DNA of 35,722 nt. Source: Actinomycetota bacterium (GTDB lineage Bacteria > Actinomycetota > Thermoleophilia > RBG-16-64-13). The stretch is taken from the NCBI GenBank assembly GCA_016278725.1, contig JADQBG010000017.1:1-35722 (forward strand), in the 5' to 3' direction. Position numbers and translations under genes: made by a program. Below the pieces are notes generated by a model. The model was given only the letters and a program-made list of their open reading frames with translations. It was not told where the DNA came from and did not search any database. Shown here piece after piece: positions 10,586 to 25,784 of the stretch (positions within the stretch are counted from its first letter, which is position 1; each line of letters starts with the position of its first letter).

Positions 10586-10605
10586 CACCCGCGGATTAGC
10601 TCGTT

Positions 10606-10635
10606 GACCGCCGACATTCAGGGTGGTCTTTTTTT
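10606..10635 (+). terminator. Rho-independent terminator after the histidine kinase gene
   Basis: A 7-bp stem with one G-T wobble (10606-10612 with 10622-10628) and a 9-nt loop is followed at once by seven T residues (10629-10635). It starts 20 nt after the kinase stop codon. This is the clearest intrinsic terminator in the window. Confidence 0.8.
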
Positions 10636-10698
10636 GTTCTCTTTCGCGAAAAATTGGGTAACCGCCGAGATATCGGTCGAAAGAGAGAGGTGAAGGAA

Positions 10699-11061
10699 AT
10701 GGCTGGAATTCTCTCAGTGGCCACCAACGGCTCTAACGACCCCACAAAGGCCAGTCTGGCCTTCATCACCGCGGTAGGCGCAATAGACGCGGGAGAAGAT
10801 GTGTCCATCGTGCTTCTCGCCGAGGCGGCCTACCTGGCAAAGCCGGGTGTGATCGACTCGATCCACGGAGTGGGCTTTGCCCCGCTGAAGGAGTACGTGC
10901 AGAAGGTCGTGGACGCCAAAATAGACGTCTACGTGTGAGGACCCTGCGGCAGCGCCCGTGGGGTGACCGAAAGTGATCTGAAAGAACTGAACGCCTCGTT
11001 CATCGATTCCAAGCGCTTTGCTCAGTTGATCGCCGAGGCGAAGAACGTCGTGTCTTTCTAA
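10699..11061 (+). CDS. DsrE-family protein, probable selenoprotein (in-frame TGA = Sec80)
   Basis: The frame from the ATG at 10699 meets TGA at 10936-10938 (codon 80) and then stays open to TAA at 11059-11061, giving 120 residues if the TGA is read as selenocysteine. Before the TGA are GILSVATNGSNDPTKASLAF, VSIVLLAEAAYL and VDAKIDVYV, typical of DsrE-like sulfurtransferase or redox proteins. After it come GPCGSARGVTESDL and FIDSKRFAQLIAEAKNVVSF, which continue the same family. In the relatives I recall, a cysteine sits at the TGA position, so the site would be Sec-Gly-Pro-Cys, like the CGPC of thioredoxin. A GAGAGG/GAAGG ribosome-binding region precedes the ATG. A palindrome, TTTCGCGAAA (10642-10651), lies upstream. 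The alternative is a nonsense-mutated gene. No sel genes are in the window. Confidence 0.8.
10936..10968 (+). other. UGA codon with candidate bacterial SECIS hairpin
   Basis: Directly downstream of the UGA, 10941-10949 can pair with 10956-10964 in nine consecutive base pairs (two G-U) around the 6-nt loop CAGCGC. The GG at 10939-10940 can add pairs with 10967-10968. Alternatively CGCCC (10953-10957) pairs with GGGUG (10961-10965) around a GUG loop 20 nt after the UGA. The second option better matches the spacing and loop G known for bacterial SECIS elements. Both foldings were made by eye. Confidence 0.5.
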
Positions 11062-11078
11062 GCCCGAGCAGGCTCGGC
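11062..11078 (+). terminator. Weak hairpin after the DsrE-family gene
   Basis: GCCCGAGC can pair with GCTCGGC through a 7-bp stem with one bulged C and a very short loop, immediately after the TAA at 11061. It lacks a T tract, so it is only a possible terminator. Confidence 0.3.
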
Positions 11079-11100
11079 CTCGCCGCGTAGTGCGGCCTCT

Positions 11101-11150
11101 GCGTCCGTCCCCGCTTTGCCCGTCGGCGTCCGTCCCCGCTTTGCCCGTCG
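11101..11150 (+). repeat. Perfect tandem duplication, 2 x 25 bp
   Basis: Bases 11101-11125 are repeated exactly at 11126-11150. The pair lies between the DsrE-family gene and pncA and ends two bases before a -10-like TATTAT (11153-11158). Exact identity indicates a recent duplication or a maintained pair of binding sites. No clear -35 lies at the usual distance. Confidence 0.9.
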
Positions 11151-11230
11151 GCTATTATGGGAAGGTCGCTCAATAGCGAGTACGGCCGCGAAGCGCTCCG
11201 CAATGCGCTCGAGCAACGAGGTTAAGAACC

Positions 11231-11833
11231 ATGAAGACCGACGTCACCGACGCCCTCATCGTCGTCGATGTGCAGAACTGCTTCCTCCCCGGCGGCTCGC
11301 TTGGAGTCGAAGAGGGAGACCAAGTGATTCCCGTCATCAACCGGTTGGTGCCGTTGTTTGAGCACAAGGTCTACACCAGAGACTGGCACCCCCCGGACCA
11401 TGTCAGCTTCGCCGCCGAATCTCCGGAGTACCACGACCTGTCCTGGCCGCCTCACTGCGTGCAGAACACCGAGGGTGCCGAATTCTCCACTGCGTTGGAC
11501 GTAGTGCCCGACGCGCTCGTGGTCAGCAAGGGTGACGATCCCGACAGGGAGGCATACAGCGGATTTCAGGCATCGGGCATCGACCTGGCCGCGGAGCTGC
11601 GGGGCCGCGGAGTCGAACGCGTTTTCGTCACCGGACTCGCCACCGACTACTGCGTGCGCGCCACCGCCTTGGACGCCAAGAAGGCCGGCTTCGAGGTGGT
11701 TCTGGTGCGGGACGCCGTGCGCGGGGTGGCGCCGGAAACCACCAAGAGGGCCCTCGCCGAACTCGACCAGGACGGGGTCGACAGCACGATCTCCGAGGAA
11801 ATACAGCCGGGCGACATGGTCGGGAGCCGATGA
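11231..11833 (+). CDS. pncA: Nicotinamidase
   Basis: A 200-residue isochorismatase-fold amidase that hydrolyses nicotinamide to nicotinate, the first step of NAD salvage. The catalytic triad is visible as D13 (VVDVQNCF), K100 (VVSKG) and C141 (LATDYCV). Metal ligands D51 and H53 (RDWHPPDHVSF) and H75 (WPPHCVQ) are present. Length and motif order are standard. GAGG at 11218-11221 serves the ATG at 11231. Its TGA overlaps the start of pncB (ATGA), so the first two salvage enzymes are translationally coupled. Confidence 0.96.
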   Translation: MKTDVTDALIVVDVQNCFLPGGSLGVEEGDQVIPVINRLVPLFEHKVYTRDWHPPDHVSFAAESPEYHDLSWPPHCVQNTEGAEFSTALDVVPDALVVSKGDDPDREAYSGFQASGIDLAAELRGRGVERVFVTGLATDYCVRATALDAKKAGFEVVLVRDAVRGVAPETTKRALAELDQDGVDSTISEEIQPGDMVGSR

Positions 11834-23498: not shown

Positions 23499-25784
23499 AT
23501 GAGCACGACACCAGAACGACGCCCCCTGCTCGTCTCTCGACGCTGGCTGCAGGCTTCGGCCTTTGTCTTCGTGCTCGGTTTCTTTCTCCTCGGACTGCTC
23601 GGCGCCCTGAACTATCGCGACAAGCCTCCCATCCCGGAGGAGGTGCGGGTCGATGGCGAGGTCCTTTTTACGGAAGCGGATGTGATGGCCGGACAGCAGG
23701 TCTTCCTGAGAAACGGCCTGATGGAGTACGGGAGCGTGCTTGGGCATGGAGCCTATCTCGGCCCTGACTTCACCGCTGACTACCTTCATCGGGAGATCGC
23801 CTATCTGGATGAAGCCCTCGCCGGCCGGGGAACTGCGGATCCGCAGGGGGGGCTTCGTGAGATCCTGAGGACCAACCGCTACGATCCCGATTCCGGCGTG
23901 CTCGAGTTCACCCCGCTGCAGGCGGAGGCCTTCGCCGAACTCACGGATCATTACGCCGGCTTCTTCGGCACCCCCTCCACCGAGAACGGCCTGCGCCGCG
24001 AAGCGATCACCGATCCGGAGGAGATCCGGCAGCTGACCGCCTTCTTCGGCTGGACCGCCTGGGCGGCCGCGGCCCAGAGGCCGGACAAGGACTACTCCTA
24101 CACGAACAACTGGCCCCCCGAACCCTCGATCGGCAACACCGCCACCGGCGACGCGCTGGTCTGGAGCGCGCTCTCCATCATCGCCCTGCTCGCGGGAACC
24201 GGTTTCCTGCTCGGCCTCTTTGGACGCTACAACTGGCTGGGCTGGCACGGCCGCGAAGGTGCGAACCTGCGGTTCCGCCGCCCTGACGAGGTGCGGTTGA
24301 CCCCGGCGCAGCGGGCAACCGCCTGGTTCTTCCTGGTCATGGGCCTGCTCTTCCTGCTGCAGACCCTGGTCGGCTCGCTGACCGCCCACTACCGCGCGGA
24401 TCTCTCCAGCTTCTTCGGGTTGGATCTGGCTCAACTGATCCCCTACACCATCTCGCGCACCTGGCATGTGCAGCTCTCCATCTTCTGGGTCTCCACCTCG
24501 TTCCTGGCGGCCGGGATATTCCTGCTGCCCTTGATCTCGCGGCGCGAGCCTCGCGGTCAGAACGTGCTTGCCTACCTGCTGCTCGCCGCACTTGCCGTGG
24601 TGGTTTTCGGCAGCCTGGGCGGCGAATGGCTCGGCCAGAGAGGCATGCTCGGGGATCTGTGGGCCTGGTTCGGCCACCAGGGATTCGAGTATCTGGACCT
24701 CGGGCGGGTATGGCAGGTGCTCCTCACCCTGGGTCTCTTCTTCTGGGTGGCCATTCTCTTCCGGGGGCTGCGCACCCGACTGCGCTCCGAGAGCTACGGC
24801 AACATGCCCTGGCTCTTCTTTTACGCGGGACTTGCCATCCCCGTCTTCTACGCGGTGGGCCTTCTGGCCACGCCAGACACCCACTTCACCATCACGGACT
24901 ACTGGCGCTTCTGGGTGGTTCACCTCTGGGTCGAGGACTTCCTCGAGCTCTTCACCACGGCGATGGTGGCCTTCATCTTCGTCCTCTTGGGCGTGGTCGC
25001 CATGCGGACCGCGCTTATCGTGGTCTACCTAGACATCATCCTGTACTCGATCGGCGGGGTGGTCGGCACCATGCACCACCTCTACTTCTCCGGCACCCCG
25101 GCAGCCACGATGGCCATGGGCGCCTTCTTCAGTGCGGCGGAGGTCATCCCGCTCACCCTGCTCACGGTGGAGGCTTGGAGCTTCCTCCGCCTTGGAACCG
25201 CCCAGGGGATCGGCCGCGGTCACTTCCCCCACTACTGGGCGGTCATGTTCCTGGTCGCCGTGGGCTTTTGGAACTTCCTGGGCGCCGGTGTCTTCGGCTT
25301 CTTGATCAACTTGCCAATCGTCAGCTACTACGAGATCGGCACCGCCCTTACCGCCAACCACGCACACACCGCCATGATGGGTGTCTACGGCATGCTCGCC
25401 GCGGGACTCGCCCTTTTCTGCCTCCGCTACCTCATGCCGGAGAAGCGCTGGTCCGAGAGGATGGCGAAGACCTCATTCTGGTCCCTCAACATCGGTCTCG
25501 CCTGGATGAGCTTCGTCAGTCTTTTCCCGCTGGGTGTGCTCCAACTCTACGAGTCGGTGAACCAGGGCTATTGGGAAGCGCGCACGCTCCAGTATCTGAC
25601 CTCGACCACGAACACCGTGCTCGAGTGGTTGCGGCTGCCGGGCGACGTGCTCTTCATCGTCGGGGGAGCTCTGCCCTTGCTCTGGCTCACCTGGCTTGGG
25701 GTGCGCTACTGCCGGGCATGCGGCGTGGACGGCGAAGCGGGCACCACCGATCTCTTCATGGAGGAGAGCGAAGCGGAGGCTTAG
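23499..25784 (+). CDS. norB: Quinol-dependent nitric oxide reductase (qNOR)
   Basis: A 761-residue single-chain NO reductase of the heme-copper oxidase superfamily, reducing 2 NO to N2O with electrons from quinol. An N-terminal membrane segment (about 19-38) is followed by a long outer domain (about 40-220), as in qNOR, and then about 12 helices. Residues H475, H526 and H527 fit the FeB ligands, E479 (HLWVED) the FeB glutamate and E548 the second conserved glutamate; all five show the same offset of 33 from the numbering I recall for the Geobacillus enzyme. Heme histidines H621 and H623 lie in ANHAHTAMMG. No His-to-Asn change of the NO-dismutase kind is seen. GGAGG precedes the ATG. No other denitrification gene is nearby, so NO detoxification is likely. 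Confidence 0.95.
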   Translation: MSTTPERRPLLVSRRWLQASAFVFVLGFFLLGLLGALNYRDKPPIPEEVRVDGEVLFTEADVMAGQQVFLRNGLMEYGSVLGHGAYLGPDFTADYLHREIAYLDEALAGRGTADPQGGLREILRTNRYDPDSGVLEFTPLQAEAFAELTDHYAGFFGTPSTENGLRREAITDPEEIRQLTAFFGWTAWAAAAQRPDKDYSYTNNWPPEPSIGNTATGDALVWSALSIIALLAGTGFLLGLFGRYNWLGWHGREGANLRFRRPDEVRLTPAQRATAWFFLVMGLLFLLQTLVGSLTAHYRADLSSFFGLDLAQLIPYTISRTWHVQLSIFWVSTSFLAAGIFLLPLISRREPRGQNVLAYLLLAALAVVVFGSLGGEWLGQRGMLGDLWAWFGHQGFEYLDLGRVWQVLLTLGLFFWVAILFRGLRTRLRSESYGNMPWLFFYAGLAIPVFYAVGLLATPDTHFTITDYWRFWVVHLWVEDFLELFTTAMVAFIFVLLGVVAMRTALIVVYLDIILYSIGGVVGTMHHLYFSGTPAATMAMGAFFSAAEVIPLTLLTVEAWSFLRLGTAQGIGRGHFPHYWAVMFLVAVGFWNFLGAGVFGFLINLPIVSYYEIGTALTANHAHTAMMGVYGMLAAGLALFCLRYLMPEKRWSERMAKTSFWSLNIGLAWMSFVSLFPLGVLQLYESVNQGYWEARTLQYLTSTTNTVLEWLRLPGDVLFIVGGALPLLWLTWLGVRYCRACGVDGEAGTTDLFMEESEAEA

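What the first reader, a model, noticed from the sequence alone, without database searches (positions are those of the whole stretch)
10699..11061. DsrE-family gene with in-frame TGA read as selenocysteine (Sec-Gly-Pro-Cys)
The frame carries recognisable DsrE-family sequence on both sides of a TGA at codon 80, and the TGA sits where relatives I recall have cysteine. The following Gly-Pro-Cys makes a thioredoxin-like redox site with selenium in the first position. The second half (SARGVTESDL through AKNVVSF) would not stay in frame and family-like if the TGA were an old nonsense mutation. Standard gene callers would report only a truncated protein. I recall DsrE-like proteins listed among bacterial selenoprotein families but cannot verify this here.
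Basis: partly seen in the sequence, partly recalled or inferred. Interest (0 to 1): 0.85.

Follow-up and report, generated by a model that had tools for sequence, protein, structure and literature searches.

The report
DsrE-family selenoprotein gene
A small sulfur-handling-type protein in an uncultured actinobacterium is read straight through a stop codon by inserting the rare amino acid selenocysteine at its active site; this kind of protein was already known, but here it belongs to a widely spread branch in which no ordinary cysteine version was found.

Summary
Confirmed. Window 10699-11061 is one 120-residue DsrE-family (PF02635) gene with an in-frame TGA at 10936-10938 (codon 80). The genome (99.65% complete) carries the full bacterial selenocysteine machinery: selA, selB, tRNA-Sec(TCA) and selD, and selD itself has a TGA at its known Sec site. 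The same TGA is present in every close relative found: 30/30 named loci (at least seven phyla), 13/13 top hits in the class, 38/38 in Chloroflexota. Of 24 named host genomes tested, 21 carry tRNA-Sec. The RNA right after the TGA holds a hairpin at a fixed distance (GCCC-GUG-GGG[U/C]) with compensatory base changes and unusual codon choice: a SECIS element. More distant relatives, YchN and TusD have Cys at this position, the sulfur-relay cysteine. DsrE-like UxxC selenoproteins have been catalogued since 2005, so this is a new member of a known kind. What seems less known is that this branch looks Sec-only over at least seven phyla, and that the same genome has a second DsrE selenoprotein of YchN type. 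What the protein does chemically remains inferred: a Sec/Cys pair at the sulfurtransferase site, likely sulfane-sulfur relay or reduction.

The parts
10699..11061 (+). DsrE-family selenoprotein gene, 120 codons including one Sec (TGA), stop TAA
   Evidence: translation and PF02635 match 52.4 bits across the TGA; AlphaFold2 model pLDDT 96.5 with DsrE/YchN fold
10936..10938 (+). in-frame TGA read as selenocysteine 80, at the position of the DsrE/TusD/YchN active-site cysteine
   Evidence: TGA in 30/30 named relatives and all top hits of three surveys; aligned to Cys of YchN and TusD
10945..10947 (+). Cys83 codon, the partner (probably resolving) cysteine of the U-x-x-C motif
   Evidence: invariant among all 18 Sec-form sequences in alignment A3
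10953..10965 (+). SECIS hairpin: 5-bp stem 10953-10957 with 10961-10965, GUG loop 10958-10960, loop G 20 nt after the UGA
   Evidence: covariation, 93-96% of cells paired, 0/500 shuffles reach the score; GCCCGTGGGG nearly invariant across phyla, CGT codon 30/33 against 6.8% of Arg codons in window genes
10683..10698 (+). ribosome-binding-like purine-rich leader of the gene
   Evidence: purine-rich GAGAGAGGTGAAGGAA just before the ATG; inference

Best explanation
The gene encodes a full-length 120-residue DsrE-fold selenoprotein. During translation SelB, bound to the hairpin 10953-10965, delivers Sec-tRNA(UCA) to UGA 80 (inferred from the parts shown). Sec80 lies at the end of strand 4 and the start of a helix, where YchN, TusD and other DsrE proteins have their active cysteine; Cys83 lies one helical turn on. 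Most likely mechanism (inferred): Sec80 is the nucleophile that takes up sulfane sulfur (as DsrE-Cys78 does) or attacks an oxidised or persulfidic substrate. Cys83 then resolves the intermediate as a selenenyl-sulfide, which is re-reduced by cellular thiols. The protein would thus be a stand-alone redox-active sulfur relay or sulfane-sulfur reductase, not a subunit of a Dsr or Tus operon. The confidence given is for the selenoprotein claim; for the sulfur-relay chemistry alone I would say about 0.5.
For: Shown: full-length DsrE match across the TGA; complete Sec machinery in the same genome, selA 556 bits, selB 344 bits in total, tRNA-Sec with TCA anticodon, selD 401 bits with its own Sec site GSGUACK; the TGA conserved in all close orthologues over at least seven phyla; tRNA-Sec in 21/24 named host genomes and 11/13 host genomes of the class against 185/399 of the class overall; covarying SECIS hairpin at fixed spacing and codon bias in it; dN below dS after the TGA in most close pairs; confident DsrE-fold model with best matches 3mc3 Z 16.6, YchN Z 15.3, TusD Z 13.5; U80 aligned to YchN and TusD active Cys. 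DsrE-Cys78 is shown to bind and pass on sulfur in A. vinosum (PMC3397948).
Against: No protein-level or selenium evidence. The window's own hairpin is the weak form: 5 bp, because the two lower pairs are lost, and its folding energy is not below shuffles. Its congener G001 has the TGA but lost the last 25 codons, so the gene may be dispensable. 3 of 24 and 2 of 13 draft host genomes show no tRNA-Sec. The neighbourhood is not conserved, so the substrate and the sulfur-relay step are inference only.
Confidence: 0.95

Rival explanations
1. Pseudogene: an old nonsense mutation in a DsrE gene whose downstream frame happens to remain open.
For: The congener G001 has lost the C-terminal 25 codons, and 15 codons after the TGA in the window/G001 pair show dN 0.164 over dS 0.097.
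Against: The same TGA in 30/30 loci over at least seven phyla, dN below dS after the TGA in most other pairs, a covarying hairpin, and complete Sec machinery.
Confidence: 0.02
2. Sequencing or assembly error of a TGC/TGT cysteine codon.
For: Raw reads were not available.
Against: Dozens of independent assemblies have TGA at this codon, and none of the close orthologues found has TGC/TGT.
Confidence: 0.01
3. Regulated stop: the 79-residue product is the functional one, and the hairpin is a readthrough or regulatory device without Sec.
For: Bacterial UGA recoding is usually incomplete, so a short product will also exist (general knowledge); no tool result supports a functional short form.
Against: Truncation removes two strands and three helices of the fold. 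The invariant Cys83, Arg87 and Gly88 lie beyond it. Presence goes with tRNA-Sec.
Confidence: 0.02
4. The protein is a selenoprotein, but Sec80-Cys83 is a thiol-disulfide or peroxide reductase site rather than a sulfur-relay site.
For: U-x-x-C is a redox motif; the surveys list DsrE-like UxxC among thiol-dependent redox selenoproteins (PMC1088965; PMC2398784). Many Cys relatives keep C-x-P-C. TusD has no second Cys in the motif.
Against: DsrE-fold proteins with known biochemistry (DsrEFH, TusBCD) move persulfide sulfur on this very cysteine (PMC3397948).
Confidence: 0.4

Closest known systems
DsrE-like selenoprotein, UxxC, PF02635 (Sargasso Sea 2005; Desulfovibrio vulgaris 2006; GOS 'DsrE 1' and 'DsrE 2' 2008; listed example WP_014524487.1)
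   Same: Same Pfam family, U-x-x-C motif, TGA followed by a bacterial SECIS-like hairpin
   Different: Found here in Thermoleophilia and other phyla; whether the published sequences fall in this clade could not be tested because their sequences are not held
YchN (E. coli, 1jx7)
   Same: Same fold (Z 15.3, rmsd 2.7 over 115 residues) and C-x-x-C-x-x-x-R-G at the same place, stand-alone protein
   Different: Cys instead of Sec; 17% identity. The genome's second selenoprotein (C8) is the true YchN-type member
DsrE/TusD sulfurtransferase subunits (2hy5, 2d1p)
   Same: Same fold; the catalytic Cys78 sits in the Sec80 column
   Different: Single active Cys, no second Cys at +3, work in DsrEFH/TusBCD heterohexamers; no such partner genes beside this gene
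3mc3, DsrE/DsrF-like protein of Sulfolobus solfataricus
   Same: Best fold match (Z 16.6, rmsd 2.3) and best sequence-profile match (E 9e-15); Cys at the Sec position
   Different: No second Cys at +3; archaeal; no reported function found here

Membership tests
DsrE/DsrF-like family (PF02635) | profile match above the curated cut-off | tested here: met
   52.4 bits against 22.7, profile 4-116 of 116
DsrE/DsrF-like family (PF02635) | DsrE fold | tested here: met
   AlphaFold2 pLDDT 96.5; 3mc3 Z 16.6, 1jx7 Z 15.3, 3pnx Z 14.8, 2d1p_A Z 13.5
DsrE/DsrF-like family (PF02635) | active-site cysteine column | tested here: met
   occupied by Sec; aligned with Cys of YchN, TusD, 3mc3 and 3pnx
bacterial selenoprotein | in-frame UGA conserved among orthologues, with Cys in homologues | tested here: met
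bacterial selenoprotein | SECIS hairpin just downstream with G in a small apical loop | tested here: met
   covariation in 48 sequences, score 0.314 against 0.152 +/- 0.017 shuffled; slid controls at most 0.089; the window's own copy has 5 bp
bacterial selenoprotein | selA, selB, selC and selD in the genome | tested here: met
bacterial selenoprotein | selenium in the protein | not testable with these tools
   needs 75Se labelling or mass spectrometry
DsrE-like UxxC selenoproteins (Zhang and Gladyshev surveys) | PF02635 with U-x-x-C | tested here: met
   U80-G-P-C83; family definition in PMC1088965 and PMC13188914
DsrE-like UxxC selenoproteins (Zhang and Gladyshev surveys) | same clade as the published sequences | not tested
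   the published sequences are not in the collections used here
DsrEFH / TusBCD complexes | partner subunits encoded next to the gene | tested here: not met
   neighbours in the window are a two-component system, an isochorismatase-family gene and nicotinate phosphoribosyltransferase; no conserved neighbours over about 30 loci
thioredoxin family | thioredoxin-family profile match | tested here: not met
   only DsrE is matched at E up to 0.1; the CGPC-like motif is a resemblance only

The most novel reading that the evidence does not exclude
This gene belongs to a DsrE clade that is obligately selenocysteine-using. No Cys member of the clade was found in the searches made, although the search profile carries Cys at that site. 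The clade has spread between at least seven bacterial phyla with an almost invariant SECIS core (GCCCGTGGGG), which suggests a Sec-dependent chemistry that Cys cannot replace and SECIS-SelB compatibility across phyla. One genome can hold two different DsrE selenoproteins.
Probability: 0.5. Interest if true: 0.55.

Novelty: new member of a known kind. Interest (0 to 1): 0.42.

Why it matters
Gene callers cut this protein off at codon 79 or miss it, so a widely distributed redox/sulfur protein is probably misannotated in many genomes. The branch offers a test of why some selenoproteins never revert to cysteine, and puts selenium at the very residue that relays sulfur in DsrE/TusD, a site where Se-versus-S chemistry can be compared directly.

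Tried and rejected
NCBIfam gave no specific model, only TusB/DsrH below cut-off (21.5 against 49.2 bits). Rfam finds nothing in 10600-11240, so the hairpin rests on covariation, not on a catalogued family. Single-sequence folding of the 50 nt after the TGA is not informative: the window's minimum-energy fold is a different, longer hairpin that excludes the conserved one. A genomic-context clue was sought by clustering ORFs around about 30 loci; nothing recurs except among near relatives. Plasmid records hold only distant homologues of at most 35% identity. Genetic-code reassignment was rejected because TGA ends 7 of 16 other genes checked in the window.

Full report
OBSERVATION. The frame 10699-11061 reads MAGILSVATNGSNDP...KIDVYV-TGA-GPCGSARGVTESDL...AKNVVSF-TAA, with the TGA at codon 80. 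The read-through protein matches Pfam DsrE over the whole profile (52.4 bits, cut-off 22.7). The parts before and after the TGA match adjacent parts of that profile. TGA ends 7 of 16 other genes checked in the window and is internal to none, so it is a true stop elsewhere.

MACHINERY. The window is contig C17 of a 2.73-Mb, 26-contig, 99.65%-complete genome. It has tRNA-Sec with a TCA anticodon (C14:2172-2264, 74.9 bits), selA (C18:21560-22930, 556 bits), selB next to it (C18, 344 bits in total) and selD (C26:106754-107677, 401 bits). selD carries its own in-frame TGA, in SHGSGUACKLGP, which by general knowledge is the usual Sec/Cys site of SelD. The class is inferred to be Thermoleophilia, because genome G395, given as same class, holds the same contig stretch as a Solirubrobacteraceae MAG (L102).

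CONSERVATION OF THE TGA. The protein's relatives were sought in several ways. Among 61 relatives, the four best non-self hits (G001, G005, G057, G050) all have one TGA, at the same codon. In 399 genomes of the class, the 13 best hits all have TGA. A scan of genome contigs of about 85,000 species gave 30 relatives; all 30 have TGA. They come from Actinomycetota (including Aquicultor and Rubrobacter), Chloroflexota, Thermodesulfobacteriota, Myxococcota, Rokubacteria, Poribacteria and Armatimonadota. One of the two patterns used in that scan did not include the TGA position, and the other demanded Cys there, so the scan was not biased towards TGA. In 400 Chloroflexota genomes the 38 best matches, in 35 genomes, all have TGA (20 of them read). 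In 395 genomes of the phylum of L080 the three best matches have TGA. The profiles carry Cys at the site, so Cys members would have scored at least as well; none appeared. On a tree of 73 proteins, 34 Sec forms including the window are one side of a supported branch (96/92). Inside it phyla are mixed, which suggests horizontal transfer.

WHAT STANDS AT THIS SITE ELSEWHERE. More distant DsrE homologues have C-x-P-C or C-G-x-C (for example VCTPCIQER, YACTPCAKARQ, WACGACTKPRG), and an actinobacterial sister group has S-G-M-S with both cysteines lost. Some further TGA forms in the Thermodesulfobacteriota sample (L132, L169-L171, L173) have different sequence after the TGA, so Sec may have been gained more than once in the family.

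SECIS. The proteins align without gaps just after the TGA, so the DNA can be compared column by column. A stem of columns 16-22 with 26-32 and a GUG loop lies at a fixed distance; the loop G is 20 nt after the UGA. In 48 sequences 93.2% of cells pair, with 32 cells changed on both sides. The covariation score is 0.314 against 0.152 +/- 0.017 in shuffles (0 of 500 reach it) and at most 0.089 when the partner is slid (first set of 33). Column pair 18/30 takes C-G, G-C, U-G and A-U, and 17/31 takes U-A, A-U and C-G. The Arg87 codon is CGT in 30 of 33 sequences although CGT is 6.8% of Arg codons in window genes; Gly88 is GGG in 31 of 33 against 23%. Shuffle counts lean on related sequences, but the slid controls keep relatedness. 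The window's own copy keeps only the upper 5 pairs (10953-10957 with 10961-10965), and its energy alone is unremarkable. Downstream of the TGA, dN is below dS in most close pairs; the window/G001 pair over 15 codons and one very close pair (L096/L097) are exceptions.

CO-OCCURRENCE. Of 24 named host genomes held, 21 have tRNA-Sec above the Rfam cut-off. In the class 11 of 13 hosts have it, against 185 of 399 genomes overall. The exceptions G050 and G304 are drafts in 170 and 490 contigs.

STRUCTURE AND MECHANISM. The AlphaFold2 model (pLDDT 96.5, pTM 0.90) has the DsrE fold, with best matches 3mc3, YchN, 3pnx, DsrH and TusD. Sec80 (modelled as Cys) ends strand 76-80 and Cys83 lies in helix 81-86. 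A profile of the family aligns the Sec column with the Cys of YchN (LCKTC), TusD (ICVAAALRRG) and 3mc3 (YVC). In A. vinosum DsrE that residue, Cys78, binds sulfur and hands it to DsrC (PMC3397948). The likely mechanism is therefore Sec80 as nucleophile for sulfane sulfur or an oxidised substrate, with Cys83 as resolving thiol. This step is inference. The gene has no conserved neighbours and no Dsr/Tus partners beside it, so it probably works as a homo-oligomer like YchN.

COMPARISON WITH THE KNOWN. DsrE-like UxxC selenoproteins were found in the Sargasso Sea (two sequences; PMC1088965), in Desulfovibrio vulgaris (PMC1794560) and in the GOS data as DsrE 1 and DsrE 2 (2 and 19 Sec forms; PMC2398784), and a 2026 review lists the family among selenoproteins whose functions remain largely uncharacterised (PMC13188914). 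The case is thus a new member of a known kind. The papers available here do not describe a DsrE selenoprotein in Thermoleophilia, the near-invariant SECIS across phyla, or the apparent absence of Cys forms in this clade; subscription papers were not searched.

SECOND CASE IN THE SAME GENOME. A search for DsrE proteins in the genome found another with an in-frame TGA at C8:149509-149850 (66.4 bits)...VGLUGSCMDARGLASH..., a YchN-type protein (1jx7, E 5.5e-25). Its TGA falls on YchN's first cysteine (LCKTC), and GACGCC-CGUGGUCU-GGCGUC can pair just after it. Two other DsrE paralogues, on C1 and C19, have Cys.

LIMITS. No protein evidence, no raw reads, mostly draft genomes. The congener G001 lost the last 25 codons of the gene. 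The Sec-only statement holds only for the collections and sensitivities used.

Noticed in passing
own genome G000 C8:149509-149850 (-), locus L174: A second DsrE-family gene with an in-frame TGA (VGLUGSCMDARGL), YchN-type, with a possible hairpin GACGCC-CGUGGUCU-GGCGUC after the TGA: a second likely DsrE selenoprotein in the same genome.
   Followed up: partly
own genome G000 C26:106754-107677 (+), locus L044: selD carries an in-frame TGA in SHGSGUACKLGP and is itself a likely selenoprotein.
   Followed up: yes
L074 5001-5381 (same-genus genome G001): The congener has the same TGA and hairpin but a deletion removes the last 25 codons and joins the frame to the downstream repeat region.
   Followed up: partly
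window 11101-11152: Two perfect tandem copies of a 25-bp unit GCGTCCGTCCCCGCTTTGCCCGTCG just downstream of the gene; the congener has one copy, and its deletion in the DsrE gene ends close to this spot.
   Followed up: partly
L125 1501-1836 (-) (genome G633): A Cys-type DsrE homologue with TGA at a different cysteine (THGULQHV where a close relative has THGCLEHV): either a sequencing error, a decaying gene or another Sec site.
   Followed up: no
L167 (genome G420 C74:21671-22060): A DsrE Sec form with two in-frame TGA, one at the usual Sec site with the usual hairpin and one inside a local insertion (IPUWREAAIE).
   Followed up: no
L132, L169, L170, L171, L173 (Thermodesulfobacteriota sample): DsrE proteins of other branches with TGA at the same column but unrelated sequence after it: possible independent gains of selenocysteine.
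   Followed up: partly
L014, L058-L066, L069, L154, L156, L161, L165: A DsrE sister group in which the U-x-x-C pair is replaced by S-G-M-S-S, so both redox residues are lost while the fold and ARG motif mostly stay.
   Followed up: partly
window 23499-25784 (+): Nitric oxide reductase-type gene (NorB with fused cytochrome c-like domain, COX1 family) in the same window.
   Followed up: no
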